Of a stretch of DNA of 22,593 bases, positions 672-9,666 are shown piece after piece (positions within the stretch are counted from its first letter, which is position 1; each line of letters starts with the position of its first letter). The position numbers and the translations under genes are program-made. This DNA is from a virus: positions 1 to 22,593 of the IMG/VR virus record IMGVR_UViG_3300027985_000980; one strand, written 5' to 3'. Under the pieces are notes generated by a model. That model saw only the letters and a list, made by a program, of their open reading frames with translations, did not search any database and was not told the DNA's origin.

Positions 672-1628
672 TTACTCCTCTTTCTGCGCTTTCTTGCCGC
701 GCTTGGAAGTGGTCGTGGGAGCCCCGTCCGAATCCTCGGTGTCGGGGTCGCTAGGCGTGAAGCCCGCGACTTCGGTCAGGAGGTGCTGGAGCGGGAAGCC
801 GGCCTTCATCTCGGCGTAGGACCACTGGGAATACGCGAGCTCGTTGGCCCACTGCTGTCTGTCCGGGCGGTCCGGGTTCTGAATCGTCGCCAGGTCTTTG
901 TTCGCGACCGGCGATGCCATGGATTCGTCCAGTACAAAGACCGGAACGCCGCGAATCACGGCTTCCACGGCGGAGTTCGACGAGTGCACTACAACAGCGT
1001 GCGCGTTTTCAAGGTCTTCGTGGAGCGGGTCCGTAGAAACCGCACAGCCTTCGAACTCCTCCGCCTCGAAGTACGCCTCGGGGTGCGGTCGGAACACGAT
1101 CTGTCGATCGGTGTAGCCCCGGATCATCGAGATGGTCTGCCTCGCCCAAGTGTAGGGGTTCATCCCCTTGAGATTGGCATCGCCGGGCACTTGACCGCAA
1201 ACGAGGATGTAGGCGTCTTCGACTTGCTCCTTCCAGGGCTGAAGCTCGACGCGGAGATCGTTCCAACGGTCCCTTGGTGCGCCCTTCGCTTTGAAGTTGC
1301 AAAGCTTCTCATCCTGGAAGAGGCCGATGGACCAATAGCTGTTGAGGCCCGTGCCGCGACGAACATAGCCGAGCTCTACTACGATCGGCTTGCCTTCGTG
1401 CTTGAGCTGGTCCCTCACAACCTCCAACGTCCGCGTGGTGACGCCGAAGACAATCGCCGCGTCGGCCTTCATGTAGCAATCGGCTTTGTAGACGCTCGGG
1501 TTCTGAACGATTGTCCGCATCCCCAACTTCGCGGCTCCCTCTTTGAGGGCTTCCTTGATGAGCTCCCTCACGGGCTCCGCACCGTGATCGTAGATGAGAA
1601 GGACGCCTTGCTCCGTCTTGTTCTTCAT
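672..1628 (-). CDS. Glycosyltransferase-like protein (GT-B / capsule Kdo-transferase type)
   Basis: This 318-residue protein has no place in a standard capsid assembly line. Residues 179-183 read FRPHP, and residues 215-232 carry HSSNSAVEAVIRGVPVFV. An Arg-Pro-His-Pro motif followed by a Ser-rich nucleotide-sugar site and a Glu-Ala-x-x-x-Gly-x-Pro-Val turn is typical of the C-terminal lobe of GT-B glycosyltransferases, especially KpsC/KpsS-like capsular polysaccharide enzymes. A later W-x-x-x-LAYSQWS segment (residues 260-270) also fits. The N-terminal lobe is less recognisable. The C-terminal tail is acidic then Lys-rich. The gene lies between major capsid and connector genes, behind a hairpin terminator, so its expression may differ from that of the capsid gene. 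The start ATG 1628 has a GGAGG site about 8 bases upstream. Substrate unknown: virion protein, host surface sugar or modified base are all possible. Confidence 0.6.
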   Translation of the reverse strand: MKNKTEQGVLLIYDHGAEPVRELIKEALKEGAAKLGMRTIVQNPSVYKADCYMKADAAIVFGVTTRTLEVVRDQLKHEGKPIVVELGYVRRGTGLNSYWSIGLFQDEKLCNFKAKGAPRDRWNDLRVELQPWKEQVEDAYILVCGQVPGDANLKGMNPYTWARQTISMIRGYTDRQIVFRPHPEAYFEAEEFEGCAVSTDPLHEDLENAHAVVVHSSNSAVEAVIRGVPVFVLDESMASPVANKDLATIQNPDRPDRQQWANELAYSQWSYAEMKAGFPLQHLLTEVAGFTPSDPDTEDSDGAPTTTSKRGKKAQKEE

Positions 1629-1706: not shown

Positions 1707-2690
1707 CTACTGGACCTTGACGCAGAAGCCGCCCAGCGACTTCACGTCGGCGAAGACCTGGTCCCAGTTGGTACCGGTGCCGATCGTCGCGTCGTTCGGG
1801 TTGGCTCCGCCGTTCGCCACGTCCCACTCGAAACCCTTGAGCTGGACGTTGAAAGCGTATTCGCCCTGGATCCGGCCGACCAAGTTCTCGAGACCGGTCA
1901 CCAGCTGGCTCTCCAAGTCTCGGGTCTCGGACTCGATGCACTCGCCGGCTCCGGAAGTCAGGCCCAACACGTTGTAAGTGTCGGTCGCGGAACCGTTGAG
2001 ATCCCAAAGCGCGGTCGCGTCGGTCACGACAACCGGCTTCCCGAAGCTAGCAACGGTGCCCGCGTAAACGGTCGCACCCGCCACTTCGAAGAGTTTGTCG
2101 GCCAGCTGCTGCTTCATCAGGTCGAAGTACGGCTTGGAGTGCATGACCCAACACACCAGCCGGGAGGCCTGGTCTCCCAACTTCGCCATCCCGGAAACGA
2201 GATGAGTGTGGGTCAAGGTCGGGGTGCTCTGTCCGGTCGCGTCGTAGTTCAACGTCGCGACGTTCTTGATCGCCCCGGTGATCGCGGTGATCGAAGTGTT
2301 GACCATGTCCAACATCACCGCCTTCGCAATTTGCCTTCCGAGCCGGAGGGACATCGTGCTCCAATCGGAGCCGACCTTCCTCCAGGCGTCCAGAGTCTGA
2401 GCGACCGGCCCGATCTTGCGATTGACCTTGACGCCCTTCTCCTCGTCCATCGTCACCGGCAAGTCGGTAGCCGCAGCAACCGACGCGGTGTCGCGCCGGG
2501 TGACGAGGTTTCCGATCAAGTCGATGAACGCTTCGGCGTTGTAGTCGCCCTTGAGGCCCTCGGTCCGAAGAACCAAGGCCCCGTTCGAGGAAGCGTTGAA
2601 GACTTCCGCGTTCTGTTGGAGCTCCTCGACGTAGCCGCCGAAGAATTCTTCGTTGTAGACGACGAAGTTGCCAGCGGTTCCAGGTGCCAT
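1707..2690 (-). CDS. Major capsid protein (gp13-like family)
   Basis: This 327-residue protein matches the phage major capsid family called gp13-like. It is an HK97-fold shell protein that forms the procapsid with the scaffold encoded just upstream. Visible family features are the N-terminal NFVVYNEEFFGGYVEEL segment, the central DWSTMSLRLGRQIAKA helix, the WVMHSKPYFDL strand-turn, and the DATALWDLNG and CIESETRDLESQ segments towards the C-terminus. There is no long N-terminal delta domain. An AAGGAG site lies 8 bases before ATG 2690. A perfect palindrome lies 36 bases upstream and a terminator lies just downstream, which fits separately controlled, high expression. Confidence 0.9.
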   Translation of the reverse strand: MAPGTAGNFVVYNEEFFGGYVEELQQNAEVFNASSNGALVLRTEGLKGDYNAEAFIDLIGNLVTRRDTASVAAATDLPVTMDEEKGVKVNRKIGPVAQTLDAWRKVGSDWSTMSLRLGRQIAKAVMLDMVNTSITAITGAIKNVATLNYDATGQSTPTLTHTHLVSGMAKLGDQASRLVCWVMHSKPYFDLMKQQLADKLFEVAGATVYAGTVASFGKPVVVTDATALWDLNGSATDTYNVLGLTSGAGECIESETRDLESQLVTGLENLVGRIQGEYAFNVQLKGFEWDVANGGANPNDATIGTGTNWDQVFADVKSLGGFCVKVQ

Positions 2691-2725: not shown

Positions 2726-2739
2726 GAGTAGCGCTACTC
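2726..2739. repeat. Perfect 14-bp palindrome upstream of the capsid gene
   Basis: The sequence GAGTAGCGCTACTC is its own reverse complement. It overlaps the scaffold stop codon (2734-2736) and ends 36 bases before the capsid start. In RNA it would fold as a 5-bp stem with a GCGC loop. No T-run follows, so it is not a terminator; an mRNA processing or stability hairpin, or a protein-binding site, is more likely. Confidence 0.6.
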
Positions 2740-3504
2740 TCTTGGGAGTTCCTGATACTTCTGTCTGCCGTGTTCTCTGATGTAAGCGGCGATCTCCTTG
2801 TCGGTCTTAAGGTCCTTCTTGGTGCGGATGGTGCCAGCTCCCTTACTGCGGTCTCCCCCTCCACCGCCTCCTCCTTCAGAAGGCGGATACCAGTGGGGCT
2901 TGGAAGAGTCGGCAATTGACTTGACCCATTCGGCCGGAGTGAGCGGGGTCTTGCCGTCCTTGCCATACTTAAGCCCGTCACCGTCTTTGATTACGGCGAC
3001 CCCATCCTGGAGGGAGAAGACTTGCTTACCGTGAAGGACGACGTCATCGATGGCTTCCTTCCGAACTCCTACTGCAACGGCTGCGTCGGCCAAGGCCTTG
3101 TCAACGACGATCGCCGAAAGCCGCGTTGAGAGAGTTCCGTTCTCACCCTTGAGGGTTTCGATCTGAGTCTCGAAGTCCGCTTTCATGGCCGAGACCCGCC
3201 GAGTCACGACCTCTTCGATCTCCCCGGCCTCAAGAAGCTTCCCCTCTTCGAGCTTCCCGAGTTTGTCCATCGCCTCCTTGTACTTCACCGGGTCCACGCC
3301 CTTGAACTTCGCGGCTTCTTTGAGGAGCTCGATGTTCTTGTCGCGGAACTCCTTCAGCTTCTTCTTGGCTTCGTCAGCTTCGGACGCGGAAACGAGCCCT
3401 TCGATCTTGCCCTTGAAGTTGAACTTGCCATCGACCTCCTCATACAACGAGAAGGCTCCCTCCGGGATGTCTTCCTTCTTGGCGTACGACAGTTTCAGAT
3501 CCAT
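2734..3504 (-). CDS. Capsid scaffold protein
   Basis: This 256-residue, highly charged protein lies directly before the major capsid gene, the usual place for a scaffold that guides procapsid assembly and then leaves the shell. Residues 42-130 are Lys/Glu-rich and mostly helical (ADEAKKKLKEFRDKNIELLKEA and following), typical of phage scaffolds. Residues 211-217 form a run of seven glycines that separates the helical body from a basic C-terminal segment (residues 218-256), probably the capsid-binding part. The start ATG 3504 is preceded by GGAGG, itself inside a small hairpin (GACC, loop GGA, GGTC). No protease domain is fused to it. Confidence 0.8.
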   Translation of the reverse strand: MDLKLSYAKKEDIPEGAFSLYEEVDGKFNFKGKIEGLVSASEADEAKKKLKEFRDKNIELLKEAAKFKGVDPVKYKEAMDKLGKLEEGKLLEAGEIEEVVTRRVSAMKADFETQIETLKGENGTLSTRLSAIVVDKALADAAVAVGVRKEAIDDVVLHGKQVFSLQDGVAVIKDGDGLKYGKDGKTPLTPAEWVKSIADSSKPHWYPPSEGGGGGGGDRSKGAGTIRTKKDLKTDKEIAAYIREHGRQKYQELPRE

Positions 3505-3696: not shown

Positions 3697-3948
3697 CTAG
3701 CGCTCTTCGACGTCGAAACCGTGGAGCCCTAGGATCCGCTCCCACGGCCCGCGTCCCTCGGCCTCGACGCGCTCCACGATCTTGCCTTCGAACTCGGGGT
3801 CGTCCCCTGGCGGTGGCCCGAGGTTGACGGGGGTATTCTCGGCCATCTCCTCCAAGAGCGTCCGAAGCTGCGCATCCTTGCACTCAACAATCGTCTGGAT
3901 GTCGCGAAGCTGCGCTACAACCTTGCCGCCTTTCAGCACCTCAATCAT
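3697..3948 (-). CDS. Small hypothetical head-module protein
   Basis: This 83-residue acidic protein is not one I recognise. It begins MIEVLKGGKVVAQLRDIQT, has a helical middle (residues 23-38) and a Pro/Gly-rich segment (residues 44-50), and ends in a Glu-rich tail. The start overlaps the end of the MuF-like gene by 8 bases, so the two are probably translationally coupled, with GGAG upstream in the end of that gene. The position between the MuF protein and the scaffold suggests a minor head or assembly role, but nothing in the sequence shows it. Confidence 0.7.
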   Translation of the reverse strand: MIEVLKGGKVVAQLRDIQTIVECKDAQLRTLLEEMAENTPVNLGPPPGDDPEFEGKIVERVEAEGRGPWERILGLHGFDVEER

Positions 3949-6505
3949 TGAAGTACGCTCCCGTCAGCATCTCGTGGACCCACTTGTACGTCAATGGCCA
4001 ATCCCGTTCTAGTTTGTCCTTGGCTGAGCCGCCCCTCGTGTACTGACAGATTGACTCGGCCCACCATTCGTTGCTCGAATAAAGGCAGTAAGCCCGTCCT
4101 TCTGGAAGAGAACGGAGGAACGCTGGGTCTTGTAACTTCGATCCCGCCTTGTACCCCTCGTAGGACCAGTCCGGCTTCTTCCAACCGGTCTTCTTTTCGA
4201 AGATGGCCCTGCACTTTTTGAACTCCTCCATTGCTTTGATCTTCTCATTGCGGGCTTTCTGCTTGTCGAACCAGGCCGAGTGGACATCCCCGGTCTTCGG
4301 TGAAACGATCTTTACCTCCTTGTAGCGGTCGCGTCCTCCTTGAGCGAAAAGATACTCAACGGAGTGTCCCCATTCATGAAAGAGAACATCGTTCGCCGAG
4401 GCCCACTTTGAAGTGAAAACGATCTCTTTGTTCTGGATGTTGTAGTGGGCTGCGGCCCAATCTATGACTTCTTGTCCGCGCTCCATCCGGATTGTCAGTT
4501 CGTCGTTGACCCCAAGGATGAGCCGCGAGTCAAGCTTCAACTCGTTGCATCGAAGTGCCATCTTCCGAATGTTGTCGTCGAGCCGGACTGTTGGATCTCC
4601 ACCTTTCTTGGCTGCGGAACTCAAGCTATCGTAAAGTGCGGCCGAACTCAAGTTCATCCGTTTAATCTGACTGACCGGCTGGGATCGGTCGATATACTTC
4701 CAGGCCTCAGGGATGATTCTCTCGTAACCGGTCAGCCCTTCGTTCTGCAGCCAGCTACCAATACGAGTCTCCGGTAGGAAGGCCAGTTTCTTCGTTGAGA
4801 TGCCATTCGCCAAGGCCCACATCCGGTCAATTGTCTCCGGGTGGATCCGCTCCATCTCTTTGAGTTGCTCAACGGTGGGCATGAAAGTCGCGTACTTGTT
4901 CCCCTTGTTGGCCTTCATGTAGTAGTCTTGGATCCCCTTGATCTTCTCTTCGGAGCTCAACGTGGCAGCTTTTTTGAGCGCGTCAAGCACGCCCTTCCGA
5001 TCGCGTCCTTTCCCGATCGTCTCCAAGGCGCTTACCCATCCGTTCTCCGGATCAACCCGGTTCGGCATTTGGATCGTTTTGCCAATTGGGATGAACTTGG
5101 TCCGGATGGTGTTGTCTGTGAACTGTTTGAGCGCAGCCTCCCGCAGCTCCTTGAGGTCGGTGCCGCTATAAGTAGAAACGTTCTCAAGCCAGTCAAGCGC
5201 CCCCTGCCCTCCGTAAGTCTGGAACTCTTCTCGGAGCGCTTCCATCAATCCTTTCGGCTGCGAGATCTGCAAGATCGCAGCGATGGCGTTCATCTTGGCC
5301 GAGTCGTCCAGCTTCCTCAGTTCTTCGAAGTCAACCTTGGAGGTTGTCTTCTTGGCAGCGGGCTCCCCCTTCTTGGGTGCGACCCGGCCTGGCAATGTTC
5401 CTTTGTCCACGGCCTCTTGCAGCTTCTGGAGGGAGATGGGACGCCCGGACTGATCCACCAAGTCTCTTAGTGTGATCTTGCCTTCTCTCCAAAGCTGCGC
5501 TTTGCCTTTGCCGAGAATCCGGTCCTGCTCTTTCGGGCTCCGCTGCTTGAGCCACTGCTCATAGGTCAGGTTCGTGGGGGCTTGCCCGTTCATCGTTGCG
5601 CGGGTGCCCTCCGGGATCTTCTCTTTGATCTTCCCGTTGGTGATCTTGTCCCACGAGTACAATACCGGTACCAACGCAGTGCGGCAGTTCCAATGCCAAG
5701 GCGGAGGCCCTGGGAAGTCTTCTTGGACCGGGCTCTCCTTCGTGGCCTTCCCGGTCTCCAAGTCCCAGATCGCGCCGGAGCGCCCTATGCAAAGGTCGGT
5801 CGTGCGCAAGTCGAAAGTAACAACGGCCTCCACACCGGAGATGATGTCGCTATTCGCCTTGTAGGCCTCCATGCGGCTTTCGTTCTGTACGGCCTGGCTC
5901 GAAGTCCGCACCAAGGCTTCAGCCTCGCGCCTGGACTTAGACATGATCCCGTTCTGATACCCGGCCTCTCTTGTTCCTCGAATCCGCTTGGTCAGGTCGC
6001 CCAAGTTCTCGCCTTGGGCCATGCCCTTCGCCATCTCTTGCTTGAAACGCTCTTGGAGGTTGCCGGCTTGCTTAGCCCACCAGTCTTTGATGGGGGCTCC
6101 TTCGATGAGCGTGTTCTTTGCCAACTGCGCAGCGGTGGAAGCCGGCATAGCAACCGTCGTCACATCCGCGAGTAGCGCGACGTCAATGGCGTTGCCGACT
6201 GCCCGATCCTCCAAAAGGGCGAGACCCTTGAACGCTGCTTGAGTCTCCTTGTTGATTGCGGCGTAAGTCCTTCGGATGTTCTCTCGCGTTTGCTCCAACA
6301 GCTTGAGCATCCGGATCTTGCGGTATGAGACTGCCGAGACCGCGGTCGGATCCATCTTAGCTAAAGTTGCGACGAGCTCGTCTTCCAACTCTTTCAAGTT
6401 GGCGAGGATTTTCTTCTGCACGCCCGCTTCGTAGCGGTGCACGTTGATGGAGTGCCGCGTCAAGTAGTCGAACGCTCGATCGGCGGGGACGCGCTGCTTA
6501 GGCAT
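3941..6505 (-). CDS. Mu gpF-like minor head protein fused to a zinc metallopeptidase domain
   Basis: I choose the ATG at 6505, giving 854 residues. It has GGAAGG about 9 bases upstream and overlaps the previous stop by 8 bases; a longer version would need a TTG start at 6547. Residues about 196-286 carry the Mu gpF-like head domain: ALVRTSSQAVQNESR, then TFDLRTTDLC and PPWHWNCRT (gpF-type Trp-His-x-Asn-Cys-Arg signature). This family joins portal and capsid and may enter the cell with DNA. A Lys/Pro-rich linker near 375-390 leads to a long extra region. Its end holds HEWGH at residues 710-714, a zincin HExxH motif, followed about 100 residues later by NEWWAES (Glu813, Glu817), a likely source of the third zinc ligand. 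Ordinary gpF-like proteins lack this domain. Possible roles are head maturation protease or an injected effector, as in MuF polymorphic toxins. Confidence 0.85.
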   Translation of the reverse strand: MPKQRVPADRAFDYLTRHSINVHRYEAGVQKKILANLKELEDELVATLAKMDPTAVSAVSYRKIRMLKLLEQTRENIRRTYAAINKETQAAFKGLALLEDRAVGNAIDVALLADVTTVAMPASTAAQLAKNTLIEGAPIKDWWAKQAGNLQERFKQEMAKGMAQGENLGDLTKRIRGTREAGYQNGIMSKSRREAEALVRTSSQAVQNESRMEAYKANSDIISGVEAVVTFDLRTTDLCIGRSGAIWDLETGKATKESPVQEDFPGPPPWHWNCRTALVPVLYSWDKITNGKIKEKIPEGTRATMNGQAPTNLTYEQWLKQRSPKEQDRILGKGKAQLWREGKITLRDLVDQSGRPISLQKLQEAVDKGTLPGRVAPKKGEPAAKKTTSKVDFEELRKLDDSAKMNAIAAILQISQPKGLMEALREEFQTYGGQGALDWLENVSTYSGTDLKELREAALKQFTDNTIRTKFIPIGKTIQMPNRVDPENGWVSALETIGKGRDRKGVLDALKKAATLSSEEKIKGIQDYYMKANKGNKYATFMPTVEQLKEMERIHPETIDRMWALANGISTKKLAFLPETRIGSWLQNEGLTGYERIIPEAWKYIDRSQPVSQIKRMNLSSAALYDSLSSAAKKGGDPTVRLDDNIRKMALRCNELKLDSRLILGVNDELTIRMERGQEVIDWAAAHYNIQNKEIVFTSKWASANDVLFHEWGHSVEYLFAQGGRDRYKEVKIVSPKTGDVHSAWFDKQKARNEKIKAMEEFKKCRAIFEKKTGWKKPDWSYEGYKAGSKLQDPAFLRSLPEGRAYCLYSSNEWWAESICQYTRGGSAKDKLERDWPLTYKWVHEMLTGAYFND

Positions 6506-6923
6506 CGGCAACAACCTTCCAGGCTTCAATGAGTTGGTAGCGTTCAAGCACCCTATAGGGCTCCGCCACCAAGCGACTGGTCTCGATTACTTCTCCGTGG
6601 TTGCCGTCCCAAACGACCCAGTGTAGTTTCTCGGGGTAGACCTTGGCTTGAATTGCCAGCAACGCATGCCAACATTCCCGGACTGCATCATGGGTCGCGT
6701 CAATTCTTTCGAGTCTGATCTTGCGCCGGACTAAGTACTCCCGCGCTTGTTCGAGTGCAATGGGCCGACCTTCGTAGTGGATCTCTTGGAAAACCTGCTG
6801 GGGCCTTTCCCCGGTTAAGATCGCACAGCAATAGACGAGGCAGCTGAAGTCATCGTGTTGTTTGCGCGGTCGGAAGCCTACCATTCGCTCCAAGGTTGGT
6901 TGAGTGGGCCGACTCTTGACCAT
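6498..6923 (-). CDS. C39/papain-like cysteine peptidase candidate
   Basis: This 141-residue protein has the layout of a C39-like peptidase domain. Residues 24-35 read DDFSCLVYCCAI, with Cys28 at the start of a hydrophobic helix where the nucleophile of this fold sits, followed by a GRPIALEQAREYL helix and then LHWVVWDGN (His101) where the catalytic His sits. The third position, usually Asp-Pro shortly after the His strand, reads VIETS here, so the triad may be altered. It lies 3 bases after the portal gene and overlaps the MuF gene by 8 bases, so it belongs to the head operon. It could be an assembly protease, or a catalytically changed papain-fold protein used structurally. Confidence 0.55.
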   Translation of the reverse strand: MVKSRPTQPTLERMVGFRPRKQHDDFSCLVYCCAILTGERPQQVFQEIHYEGRPIALEQAREYLVRRKIRLERIDATHDAVRECWHALLAIQAKVYPEKLHWVVWDGNHGEVIETSRLVAEPYRVLERYQLIEAWKVVADA

Positions 6924-6926
6924 GGG

Positions 6927-8378
6927 CTACTCGGTTACGGCGTCTTCATCGCCCTCGGGGTTGTCTTCGTCCTCCCCTCCCAAGTCGAGAGGATCGCCTT
7001 CCTCTTCGACCGGCTTACGGGCCTCGATGAGTTTCATCTCGTCTTCGGCTTCGACTCCTGGAGGAAGGACTTCGCCCCTCTTGAGGTTGTAGACGAAGGT
7101 CTCCCAAGAGATGCCGCCGGCCTGGTAGGTTGAGAACAACGCGATAACTTCCTGCGCCGTTAAAGGCTCCGCCACGTAGTCGGTGTTGACTCCGACTGCA
7201 ACGTCGTCCGGGTTCCCGCCTTGCCACTCGACCCAGCGAGCAAGCGCCTTCTCGATGCCCTCCGCGACCGAGATAGCCATCGAAGCCAAGGACGCGGACT
7301 CCCCTGCTTGCCGGATCCTCGCAGTCTCAGCAGCCTCCACGCCTTTCCTCGGGGCCTCCAACATCCGAGCCCCAAGGATGGCCATCAACTGCTCTTTCTT
7401 CTCCAGCCGGGACTCCAAAGCTTGGAGGCCTTGCCCGGTGAACTCCAAGAAACCCGCCTTGGCGTTGACGTCGTCCGAGACCCAGGCCTTGGCAGAGCCG
7501 ATCGTGAAGACACTGTCAGTTGGGAAGCCGGCGATCCACGCAGTAGGCAGCGCAGTGAAGTGTGCTCCGTGCTCCAAGTCGGCGCTGGTACGGTAATGAG
7601 AGACGTTAACCTGTGCCAAGTCCAAGAGCGGAGGCTTCGCCATGGCCTCCTGCGGTCCGAACGGCGTAACGAAGGCGAACGGGATTTCTTTAAGAGGCTG
7701 TCCTCGGAAAGTCGGGAGGATGTCCTCGGTCTTCGTATAAACCGTCTGCTCTTTGCCGTCCTTCGTCGTGGCCGTCGCTTCCCAGATCTCAACCCGGTAG
7801 ATCTGACTCTCCTCGTCCAGCTTAAGCACCCGATACTGCGTCTTGGTCCCTTCCTCGAATTCGTCATTGCCCGGATCCGCTACTTCCTCCTCCAGGACAA
7901 CCATCGAAAGGAGGCGACGCCCGTTAACGACGATGTACTTCCAGTTGAGTATCCGCTCCGTCACATACCCCGCGAAGTAGGGGATGGCCTTCTCGGAAGG
8001 CCCCTCTGGCAAGTCAACCAGGATGCCGTAGCGCCCGACTAAGAGCACCTCGTCGAACACGTTACGAGAGAAAGTCCAGATGTTCATCCCGGACAAGTCA
8101 ACCGAGGAGAGGTTGTCTTTGAGGTTCTCCGGGATCTTGAACTCCGGATCCTTGCGGAAGACCAGGCCAACGAGCCCCTCCAAGGTCCGCGACATCGCGT
8201 TGTAGAAAAGCGCTCGGGCCTTGTAGGCGTTGTACTCGGCTTCATCCTGCCCGCTCAAGATGGGCAAGTAAAGCTGGCCTCGCTCCTTGATGAGGCGTTC
8301 TCCTTCGGCGCAATCGCGGCAGAGTTGCCAGTCTTTGGTCGCGGCGGTGTACGCTTCGTGCTTGGTGTCAACGGGCAT
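6927..8378 (-). CDS. Portal protein (DUF4055 family)
   Basis: This 483-residue protein starts MPVDTKHEAYTAATKDW. I use ATG 8378 because GGAGG lies 7 bases upstream; the frame is also open to a TTG at 8393, which overlaps the ribosome-binding site and is unlikely. It overlaps the large terminase end by 11 bases. The sequence matches DUF4055-type portals: an N-terminal segment with YLPILSGQDEAEYNAYKARA and a VGLVFRKDPEF turn, a middle VGRYGILVDLPEG segment, and a C-terminal half with LAQVNVSHYRTSADLEHGAHF and a helical SGMAISVAEGIE-like region. Portals form the dodecameric ring at one capsid vertex through which DNA is packaged and ejected. The C-terminus is strongly acidic. Confidence 0.92.
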   Translation of the reverse strand: MPVDTKHEAYTAATKDWQLCRDCAEGERLIKERGQLYLPILSGQDEAEYNAYKARALFYNAMSRTLEGLVGLVFRKDPEFKIPENLKDNLSSVDLSGMNIWTFSRNVFDEVLLVGRYGILVDLPEGPSEKAIPYFAGYVTERILNWKYIVVNGRRLLSMVVLEEEVADPGNDEFEEGTKTQYRVLKLDEESQIYRVEIWEATATTKDGKEQTVYTKTEDILPTFRGQPLKEIPFAFVTPFGPQEAMAKPPLLDLAQVNVSHYRTSADLEHGAHFTALPTAWIAGFPTDSVFTIGSAKAWVSDDVNAKAGFLEFTGQGLQALESRLEKKEQLMAILGARMLEAPRKGVEAAETARIRQAGESASLASMAISVAEGIEKALARWVEWQGGNPDDVAVGVNTDYVAEPLTAQEVIALFSTYQAGGISWETFVYNLKRGEVLPPGVEAEDEMKLIEARKPVEEEGDPLDLGGEDEDNPEGDEDAVTE

Positions 8379-9666
8379 AGGCTGTTCCTCCAAGTTGTAC
8401 GAGCTTGGGTTGCGCTCGGTGGAGCGGGAACAAGTACGCCACCGGGTACGTGGCCGCGTCCAACAAGTGAGTCATCGACTCTTGCTTCTTCATCTTCTCG
8501 TAAGTGTGTTGCTCCATGTAGCGGGCCAGCAGCTTACACTTGGGCGACATCGTCAGCGTCGGAGGCCCACCTTTAGGAGGGCACAGCTTCGCGTTCGTCG
8601 CGTTGTAACGGTCTCGCCTGCGCGGGTTCTCACTCTGGCACCGTATTGACAGGCCCGCTGCCTGAATGTAGTAGAAGTCGCTCTTGCCACCGGGCGAGGA
8701 AGAGTGCCGGCTCCGGCCCGTCGCGTCAGGGTAGACATTGCGGAGCCGCTCGCCGTACTTATCGCGCCAATATGAGCAAGCAAACTCGGTGTCGGCGTTG
8801 GGCAGCTCAACTTCGTCCATGAAGTGCAGGTGCTCCCCGCTCTTCCAGAAGACAAGCGAGGCCATTGGATTGACGTTGAAGTCCATGCCAATGTGCAGCT
8901 CGAAACCCGGGTCCTCTTCTTCTTTGATGTTGCGCTTCCGGTTGAACCCGTAATAGACTTGCCCCGTAGAGAGGTTGACGAACTGGCCCTCGATGTAGGC
9001 TAGGGCTAGTTTAGGGTCGTATCCGCGCTCCATTGTTTGGACATATTCTGGAGGGAGAGCCCGGTTCTCACGGGTTGAGGCTTGTACGAGGTCAAGGTCC
9101 CAACGTTCACGCTCGTCACCTTCGCAGATGTCATAGCCCCAGTTGAGTTCCTCCGGTGTTCCGGTGAGACCAATTTCTCTAACTCTTGCAATTGGGTCTC
9201 GAGTTCGCGCCACGATCTGCTCAAAGACTGCACGATCCTGTATGAACGGCTCATCAATATTGGAACTACCAACATTAGGTCCTTTGAGTGCTTCAGGATC
9301 TTGACCAGAACCAACCCAGATTGTACCAACACGACCCCGGTGCCGCAACGTAAACTCGAAGTCCGTCTTGTTGTACGAGAAAGAAACATTGCGCCCTCGT
9401 AGGTAAGCTTTGATCGTTGGAATGATCGTCCGCTTCGCCACTTTATACGAAGGGCTCACCCAAAGGTGTGGAGACGGCGCATTGTGTAGTGCTAGTGCTA
9501 TTGCCCGCTTCGCGCCGATGAGGGTCTTCCCACCTCCGTAGCCCGTAACTAGCGCCTTGATGAAGTGTTGCGACTCCCACCACTTGCGTTGGTGAGGCCA
9601 CATGCCCCCCTTCAGTATTTGGCCATCGACTCCGATGACCGGATTCTCTTTGCGCCAAAAACTCAT
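8368..9666 (-). CDS. terL: Terminase large subunit (packaging ATPase-nuclease)
   Basis: This 432-residue protein is the DNA packaging motor. The ATPase domain shows a Walker A motif GYGGGKT at residues 42-48 and a Walker B acidic pair in NIDEP (Asp138-Glu139), with a likely coupling motif LTGTPEE near 167-173. The nuclease domain shows three acidic positions expected for an RNase H-like fold: Asp262 in GMDFNVNP, Asp314 in YPDATG, and Asp403 in HLLDAATYP. The start ATG lies 1 base after the endolysin stop, with only a weak ribosome-binding sequence, so coupled translation is likely. Length is normal for compact phage terminases. Confidence 0.95.
   Translation of the reverse strand: MSFWRKENPVIGVDGQILKGGMWPHQRKWWESQHFIKALVTGYGGGKTLIGAKRAIALALHNAPSPHLWVSPSYKVAKRTIIPTIKAYLRGRNVSFSYNKTDFEFTLRHRGRVGTIWVGSGQDPEALKGPNVGSSNIDEPFIQDRAVFEQIVARTRDPIARVREIGLTGTPEELNWGYDICEGDERERWDLDLVQASTRENRALPPEYVQTMERGYDPKLALAYIEGQFVNLSTGQVYYGFNRKRNIKEEEDPGFELHIGMDFNVNPMASLVFWKSGEHLHFMDEVELPNADTEFACSYWRDKYGERLRNVYPDATGRSRHSSSPGGKSDFYYIQAAGLSIRCQSENPRRRDRYNATNAKLCPPKGGPPTLTMSPKCKLLARYMEQHTYEKMKKQESMTHLLDAATYPVAYLFPLHRAQPKLVQLGGTAYAR

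What the first reader, a model, noticed from the sequence alone, without database searches (positions are those of the whole stretch)
3941..6505. Minor head protein fused to a zincin metallopeptidase
The N-terminal third is a Mu gpF-like head domain. The C-terminal end adds HEWGH and a downstream NEWWAES, a plausible complete zinc site, after about 400 extra residues. MuF proteins carrying toxin domains are known in temperate phages; a zincin version in a phage with no visible lysogeny genes could instead be a virion-carried, injected protease or the head maturation enzyme.
Basis: partly seen in the sequence, partly recalled or inferred. Interest (0 to 1): 0.62.

Follow-up and report, generated by a model that had tools for sequence, protein, structure and literature searches.

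The report
Phage head protein carrying a protease
This phage gene fuses a minor head protein to a zinc protease domain, in the position where related phages carry other toxin-like domains, so the virus probably carries the protease in its particle and delivers it into the bacterium with its DNA; it is a divergent member of a known kind of phage 'cargo toxin'.

Summary
Residues 1-370 are a complete short MuF minor head protein; residues 371-854 are an added extension. HEWGH (710-714), Tyr806 and Glu813 (in NEWWAES) form a complete predicted zinc site. The last ~200 residues are homologous to a phage zincin family collected by the FHExGHxx[DE] motif alone; most members are C-terminal domains of phage minor head proteins. 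The downstream Tyr and Glu, not selected for, are kept in 52/54 and 53/54 members. Profile and fold searches both lead to the lethal-factor/Pro-Pro-endopeptidase (M34-like) fold, with the same Tyr-(7)-Glu spacing.

In phages sharing this terminase, the MuF C-terminus is variable: absent (14 of 22 complete genes), M34-like zincin, ADP-ribosyltransferase or Zeta toxin. A domain that is exchanged for toxins and often missing is best read as a virion-carried effector protease, not a head-maturation enzyme. MuF-metallopeptidase fusions were reported in 2017, so this is a new, divergent member of a known kind. Target, injection and lytic lifestyle are unproven (22.6-kb fragment). New lead: a small overlapping downstream ORF whose only relative found follows the nearest MuF-zincin.

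The parts
3941..6505 (-). MuF-zincin gene, 854 aa, ATG at 6505, stop at 3941-3943
   Evidence: ATG overlaps the end of the upstream ORF by 8 nt
5396..6505 (-). residues 1-370: complete short MuF minor head protein (Phage_Mu_F core residues 154-278 = 5672-6046)
   Evidence: Pfam PF04233 E 1.1e-8; phrog_241 1.3e-95; short phage MuFs end at the equivalent of residue 366-370
4586..5395 (-). residues 371-640: middle part of the extension, no recognised domain
   Evidence: no Pfam hit; phrog_241 match runs to residue 512; no tblastn hit to residues 371-600 in the loci then held
3944..4585 (-). residues about 641-854: zincin domain, M34 (lethal factor / Pro-Pro endopeptidase)-like
   Evidence: HMM 42 bits versus 27 maximum in motif-keeping shuffles; hhalign E 7e-18; fold matches
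4364..4378 (-). HEWGH, residues 710-714 (two zinc ligands and catalytic Glu711)
4088..4090 (-). Tyr806, predicted oxyanion-hole tyrosine
   Evidence: Y in 52 of 54 aligned zincins although not selected for; spacing equivalent to PPEP-3 Tyr190 (PMC12828418)
4052..4072 (-). NEWWAES, residues 812-818; Glu813 predicted third zinc ligand
   Evidence: E in 53 of 54 aligned zincins; on a helix in the model
3697..3948 (-). 83-aa ORF overlapping the MuF-zincin stop; candidate partner (immunity/inhibitor or small head protein)
   Evidence: only relative among the ~200 loci held is the 96-aa ORF directly behind the MuF-zincin of L174 (0 of 500 shuffles as good; search of all ORFs); no hit in 50,697 phage records
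6498..6923 (-). 141-aa ORF between portal and MuF-zincin, overlapping its start; C39/papain-like look by eye, unproven
   Evidence: phrog_4049 E 0.0013, unknown function; no hit in phage records
6927..8393 (-). portal protein
   Evidence: phrog_145 2.6e-131
8368..9666 (-). terminase large subunit (used to find sister phages)
   Evidence: phrog_2 5.9e-36; 362 viral loci with relatives
2734..3504 (-). head scaffolding protein
   Evidence: phrog_206 3.6e-42
1707..2690 (-). major capsid protein, Gp13-like
   Evidence: PF20036 1.2e-97

Best explanation
The gene makes a minor head protein (MuF) that serves as the carrier for a C-terminal zinc endopeptidase with an M34-like (lethal factor / Pro-Pro endopeptidase) fold. 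His710 and His714 on the active-site helix and Glu813 on a later helix hold the zinc, Glu711 activates water and Tyr806 stabilises the oxyanion [site predicted from conservation and fold; chemistry inferred from the family]. The MuF part places a few copies at the portal inside the head [inferred from SPP1 gp7 and from virion proteomics of AXL1]; the protease is ejected with the DNA into the host, where it cleaves one or a few host proteins, or a co-delivered protein, early in infection [inferred]. The small overlapping downstream ORF may keep the protease inactive in the producing cell [speculative].
For: MuF core with the extension beginning where short MuFs stop. Complete site conserved in a family gathered by the HExxH motif only: Y806 52/54, E813 53/54. 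Of 57 aligned ORFs (window included), 31 carry Phage_Mu_F and 8 Phage_min_cap2. Fold: the window domain and the high-confidence family model (L076, pLDDT 91.7) have lethal factor and Pro-Pro endopeptidases as top PDB hits; profile versus PDB sequences gives lethal factor at 5.8e-7. PPEP-3 Tyr190/Glu197 have the same 7-residue spacing (PMC12828418). In terminase-sister phages the MuF C-terminus is polymorphic: 14 of 22 complete genes are short; the others carry the M34-like zincin (L174), ADP-ribosyltransferase (L142), Zeta toxin (L141), inteins or unassigned extensions. L174 has the order terminase, portal, MuF-zincin, small overlapping ORF, scaffold. AXL1, whose MuF carries a zincin and an ADP-ribosyltransferase, has that 1192-aa protein in purified virions (117 spectral matches, 48% coverage; PMC9206674). 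The MuF-type protein 80alpha gp44 is described as ejected with virion DNA (PMC12323379).
Against: No experiment on this protein. The window-domain model is only moderate (pLDDT 63; core blocks 81-88), and fold matches have E-values above 0.01 with TM-scores of 0.35-0.48. The nearest relatives with virion proteomics carry a different zincin subtype. The target is unknown. M34-like zincins could also act on the virion's own proteins.
Confidence: 0.66

Rival explanations
1. Head-maturation or self-processing protease: the zincin cuts scaffold, capsid or its own MuF carrier during assembly or inside the head, as proposed for polyvalent-protein metallopeptidases (P1 DdrB, N4 virion RNA polymerase).
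For: It is fused to a head protein and encoded between portal and scaffold; no separate prohead protease was recognised in the window; polyvalent zincins are thought to process polyproteins (PMC5512222); PHROG phrog_595 is labelled 'head maturation protease' and matches the MuF part.
Against: Phages with the same terminase, portal and scaffold families have short MuFs without it (14 of 22 complete genes); D14H has the same Gp13-like capsid with a short MuF; sister phages swap it for ADP-ribosyltransferase or Zeta toxin. A maturation enzyme should not be exchangeable for these. The phrog_595 match lies at residues 29-392, not in the zincin.
Confidence: 0.17
2. Anti-defence or anti-superinfection protease rather than a general toxin: injected, but acting on a host restriction or defence protein to protect incoming DNA.
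For: Same location and delivery logic; MuF-type 80alpha gp44 is described as protecting injected DNA (PMC12323379); lethal-factor-like proteases are typically narrow in specificity (general knowledge).
Against: No target evidence; cannot be separated from the main reading with sequence data. It is a sub-case of the best explanation and overlaps with its confidence.
Confidence: 0.3
3. Degenerate passenger: the domain has lost activity.
For: The window member lacks the family's SD and GHG motifs and is divergent (12-23% identity).
Against: All catalytic and ligand positions and the Y-E spacing are intact; the ORF is open over 854 codons; the C-terminal segment remains alignable almost to its last residues.
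Confidence: 0.08

Closest known systems
MuF polymorphic toxins (Jamet et al. 2017, PMC5576092)
   Same: MuF N-terminus with a C-terminal toxin-like domain; about 20% of the 191 listed carry a metallopeptidase; C-terminus variable between relatives; small adjacent ORF.
   Different: Those were found only in temperate phages and prophages, mostly of Firmicutes; this fragment shows DNA polymerase A, a primase-like protein and ThyX and no lysogeny genes, but is incomplete. The zincin here is divergent.
Bradleyvirinae/Pamexvirus minor head proteins (AXL1 gp16, phiH1, Mallos, A1432)
   Same: Same MuF subfamily (31-33% identity to the window protein) with a zincin (HELGH) after it; present in AXL1 virions.
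   Different: Their zincin is a different, shorter subtype that the family HMM scores near noise, lies in the middle, and is followed by an ADP-ribosyltransferase.
M34 peptidase fold: anthrax lethal factor catalytic domain and Pro-Pro endopeptidases
   Same: HExxH helix, tyrosine, and zinc-ligand glutamate 7 residues after the tyrosine; top fold and profile matches.
   Different: About 12-14% identity; first His to third ligand is 103 residues here versus 44 in PPEP-3 (His153 to Glu197); phage head carrier, no secretion or cell-entry parts.
Zincin-like MPTase domains of phage polyvalent proteins (Iyer et al. 2017, PMC5512222)
   Same: Phage zincin domains with distant similarity to lethal factor, in virion proteins, sometimes with MuF and ADP-ribosyltransferase.

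Membership tests
MuF polymorphic toxin | N-terminal MuF (Phage_Mu_F) domain | tested here: met
   PF04233 36.2 bits, cut-off 29.6
MuF polymorphic toxin | C-terminal extension beyond the short MuF, with a recognisable toxin-type domain | tested here: met
   extension from about residue 371; zincin domain
MuF polymorphic toxin | variable C-terminal domains among close relatives | tested here: met
   terminase-sister phages carry none, zincin, ART or Zeta
MuF polymorphic toxin | adjacent immunity gene | tested here: inconclusive
   83-aa overlapping ORF with one relative, behind the other MuF-zincin; no functional test
MuF polymorphic toxin | carried by temperate phages | tested here: inconclusive
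   no integrase or repressor recognised among the window ORFs scanned, but the record is a 22.6-kb fragment
MuF polymorphic toxin | toxic activity in bacteria | not testable with these tools
   needs an expression assay
M34 (lethal factor / PPEP) peptidase | HExxH on the active-site helix | tested here: met
   710-714, helix 115-133 of the model
M34 (lethal factor / PPEP) peptidase | third ligand Glu on a later helix and catalytic Tyr 7 residues before it | tested here: met
   Y806, E813; PPEP-3 Y190/E197
M34 (lethal factor / PPEP) peptidase | match above the curated cut-off of the family profile (Pfam ATLF) | tested here: not met
   window domain 15.7 bits, E 0.013, cut-off 27.4; relative L174 22.8 bits, E 8.7e-5, also below cut-off. 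So described as M34-like, not filed as M34
M34 (lethal factor / PPEP) peptidase | same fold in structure comparison | tested here: inconclusive
   top hits are LF and PPEPs with high Foldseek probability, but E above 0.01 and TM 0.35-0.48

The most novel reading that the evidence does not exclude
An obligately lytic phage lineage uses its minor head protein to inject an M34-like protease, and the overlapping 83-aa ORF is a dedicated inhibitor that protects the producing cell and is lost on delivery: a protease-inhibitor pair on a virion, with an unknown, possibly defence-related host substrate.
Probability: 0.2. Interest if true: 0.62.

Novelty: new member of a known kind. Interest (0 to 1): 0.38.

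Why it matters
MuF-metallopeptidases were catalogued in 2017, and the later papers found here characterise ADP-ribosyltransferase and alarmone-synthetase MuF toxins but no MuF protease. This case fixes the likely fold and catalytic residues, shows that the zincin occupies the same exchangeable slot as ADP-ribosyltransferase and Zeta toxins among close relatives, and supplies a candidate partner ORF, so the question 'what does a virion-carried protease cut?' becomes testable with a defined domain and a point-mutant control.

Tried and rejected
Reading the + strand: stops. Direct searches with the C-terminal domain or whole protein in phage records and IMG/VR: no C-terminal hits; a portal-based scan found nothing. 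Scanning with alignment A2 was not possible, no stretch being conserved enough. Pfam, NCBIfam and PDB sequence searches with the whole protein missed the zincin. Head maturation by the zincin considered and disfavoured. ORF83 as a relative of the small ORFs behind Bradleyvirinae or Pm86 MuFs: scores within the range of shuffles. Host assignment: not attempted beyond the nearest capsid (Tunturiibacter phage Tunturi_4, 53% identity, with no annotated MuF gene between portal and scaffold). Lethal-factor sequences were not fetched; only tool match lists were used.

Full report
Observation. The ORF at 3941-6505 is real and lies on the minus strand. Its start overlaps the preceding 141-aa ORF by 8 nt and its stop overlaps the following 83-aa ORF by 8 nt, so it sits in a tight head module: terminase (8368-9666), portal (6927-8393), 141-aa ORF, MuF-zincin, 83-aa ORF, scaffold (2734-3504), major capsid protein (1707-2690). 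The window is itself a whole virus record of 22,593 bases; it was treated as a probable fragment.

Architecture. Phage_Mu_F matches residues 154-278 and head-morphogenesis PHROGs match from residue 9. Short MuF proteins of Vibrio phage R01, Pasteurella phage Pm86 and Pseudomonas phage D14H end at the equivalent of residue 366-370. In the phage collection 1003 records match, none over 80% of the protein, and the best listed matches stop near residue 366; the last 335 residues have no tblastn match at E up to 1. So residues 371-854 are an added extension. Its first ~270 residues are unassigned.

The zinc site is more than a chance motif. Shuffling gives HExxH in 0.5% and HExxH plus a downstream Y..E..AE-like motif in 0.03% of cases. 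A DNA pattern for a hydrophobic residue + FHE + any T-starting codon + GHxx[DE], scanned through IMG/VR, returned 110 stretches. An HMM of 70 non-redundant domains from these, without the window protein, matches residues 678-850 (42 bits for the isolated C-terminus, 39 bits in the full protein; best motif-keeping shuffle 27 bits). hhalign gives 7e-18, although that query alignment contains the window domain. The pattern did not ask for them, yet the tyrosine and glutamate aligned with Y806 and E813 are present in 52 and 53 of 54 sequences.

What the domain is. Pfam's ATLF (lethal factor) model matches the isolated window domain weakly (E 0.013, below cut-off), five of 57 family members down to 2e-6, and the nearest relative L174 at 8.7e-5. 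The family profile against PDB sequences gives lethal factor at 5.8e-7. AlphaFold2 places HEWGH on one helix and E813 on another (core block pLDDT 81-88, whole model 63); the family member L076 folds at pLDDT 91.7. For both models the top PDB matches are lethal factor and Pro-Pro endopeptidases, with high Foldseek probabilities but E-values above 0.01. In PPEP-3 the oxyanion tyrosine (Tyr190) and the third ligand (Glu197) are 7 residues apart (PMC12828418), as are Tyr806 and Glu813. I call it M34-like and do not file it as a member of M34.

What it is attached to elsewhere. Of 57 aligned ORFs (window included), 31 carry Phage_Mu_F and 8 Phage_min_cap2; L002 carries ADP-ribosyltransferase domains before its zincin. 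Thus this zincin family is, in this sample, mainly a C-terminal domain of phage minor head proteins.

Close kin. A terminase search gave 80 loci. Of 22 complete MuF genes in them (a few near-duplicates included), 14 are short (420 aa or less) and 8 long. Among the long ones L174 (837 aa) has the zincin with the same Y-(7)-E spacing (YSLHNEFEWFAE versus YCLYSSNEWWAE), L142 an ADP-ribosyltransferase plus an intein, L141 a Zeta toxin, L155 an intein, L190 an intein-like insertion by eye, and L139 and L166 unassigned extensions that look ADP-ribosyltransferase-like by eye; L203 has another HExxH motif. L132, cut off by its contig end, also has the HEFGH motif. An optional C-terminus, exchangeable with toxin domains, is the signature of a polymorphic effector slot and speaks against an essential maturation enzyme.

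Delivery. Bradleyvirinae MuFs of the same subfamily carry a shorter HELGH zincin followed by an ADP-ribosyltransferase (30 phage records have this zincin), including AXL1, whose 1192-aa MuF was found in purified virions and whose genome lacks recognisable repressor and integrase genes (PMC9206674). The passages read there name only the MuF and VIP2 domains. The MuF-type protein 80alpha gp44 is described as ejected into cells with DNA (PMC12323379). Delivery of the window protein is inferred from these. The statement of Jamet et al. that virulent phages carry no MuF with a known toxin domain (PMC5576092) is already weakened by these Pamexvirus cases, though the close relative DLP4 was described as temperate.

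Partner ORF. Characterised MuF toxins have small adjacent immunity genes (PMC11699363). The 83-aa ORF resembles only the 96-aa ORF directly behind L174's MuF-zincin (score 51, 0 of 500 shuffles as good); no relative was found in any other locus held, including about 20 sister loci with at least 400 bases beyond MuF. This is a lead from two cases; a small head protein is equally possible.

Novelty. MuF fused to metallopeptidases is published (20% of 191 MuF toxins; PMC5576092), and phage zincins with distant lethal-factor similarity are published (PMC5512222). New here are the fold and catalytic-residue assignment for this branch, the demonstration of domain exchange among terminase-sister phages, and the partner ORF. 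Verdict: observation confirmed, interpretation partly supported, new member of a known kind.

Noticed in passing
window 3697-3948 (-) and L174:4939-5226: Small ORF overlapping the end of the MuF-zincin gene; its only relative found lies directly behind the other MuF-zincin (L174). Candidate immunity/inhibitor or small head protein.
   Followed up: partly
window 6498-6923 (-): 141-aa ORF between portal and MuF with a C39/papain-like look by eye (DDFSC ... HWVVWDGNHGEVIETS); weak phrog_4049 hit; possibly a second peptidase in the head module.
   Followed up: partly
L142:14567-16723, L155:4081-5640, L190:13113-14987: MuF genes of sister phages interrupted near the conserved NCR motif by inteins/Hint domains (Pfam for L142 and L155; by eye for L190).
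   Followed up: no
L141:3838-6075: MuF-type protein with a Zeta toxin domain followed by an ADP-ribosyltransferase-like segment (the latter by eye).
   Followed up: no
L004:5010-5366 (Pasteurella phage Pm86): Separate 118-aa ORF with LLAHEAVH directly behind a short MuF: a possible stand-alone mini-zincin in the same slot.
   Followed up: no
L005, L007, L008 and AXL1 (hit H128): Bradleyvirinae MuF-ART proteins contain an HELGH zincin between MuF and the ADP-ribosyltransferase; the annotations and the AXL1 passages read do not mention it.
   Followed up: partly
window 672-1628 (-): 318-aa ORF with a weak DUF6716 glycosyltransferase hit inside the head module; Tunturi_4 also has an annotated glycosyltransferase in its head module.
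   Followed up: no
L078, L110, L028, L037: About 300-aa ORFs with MGGRGG near their start that carry the same zincin family without a detected MuF domain.
   Followed up: no
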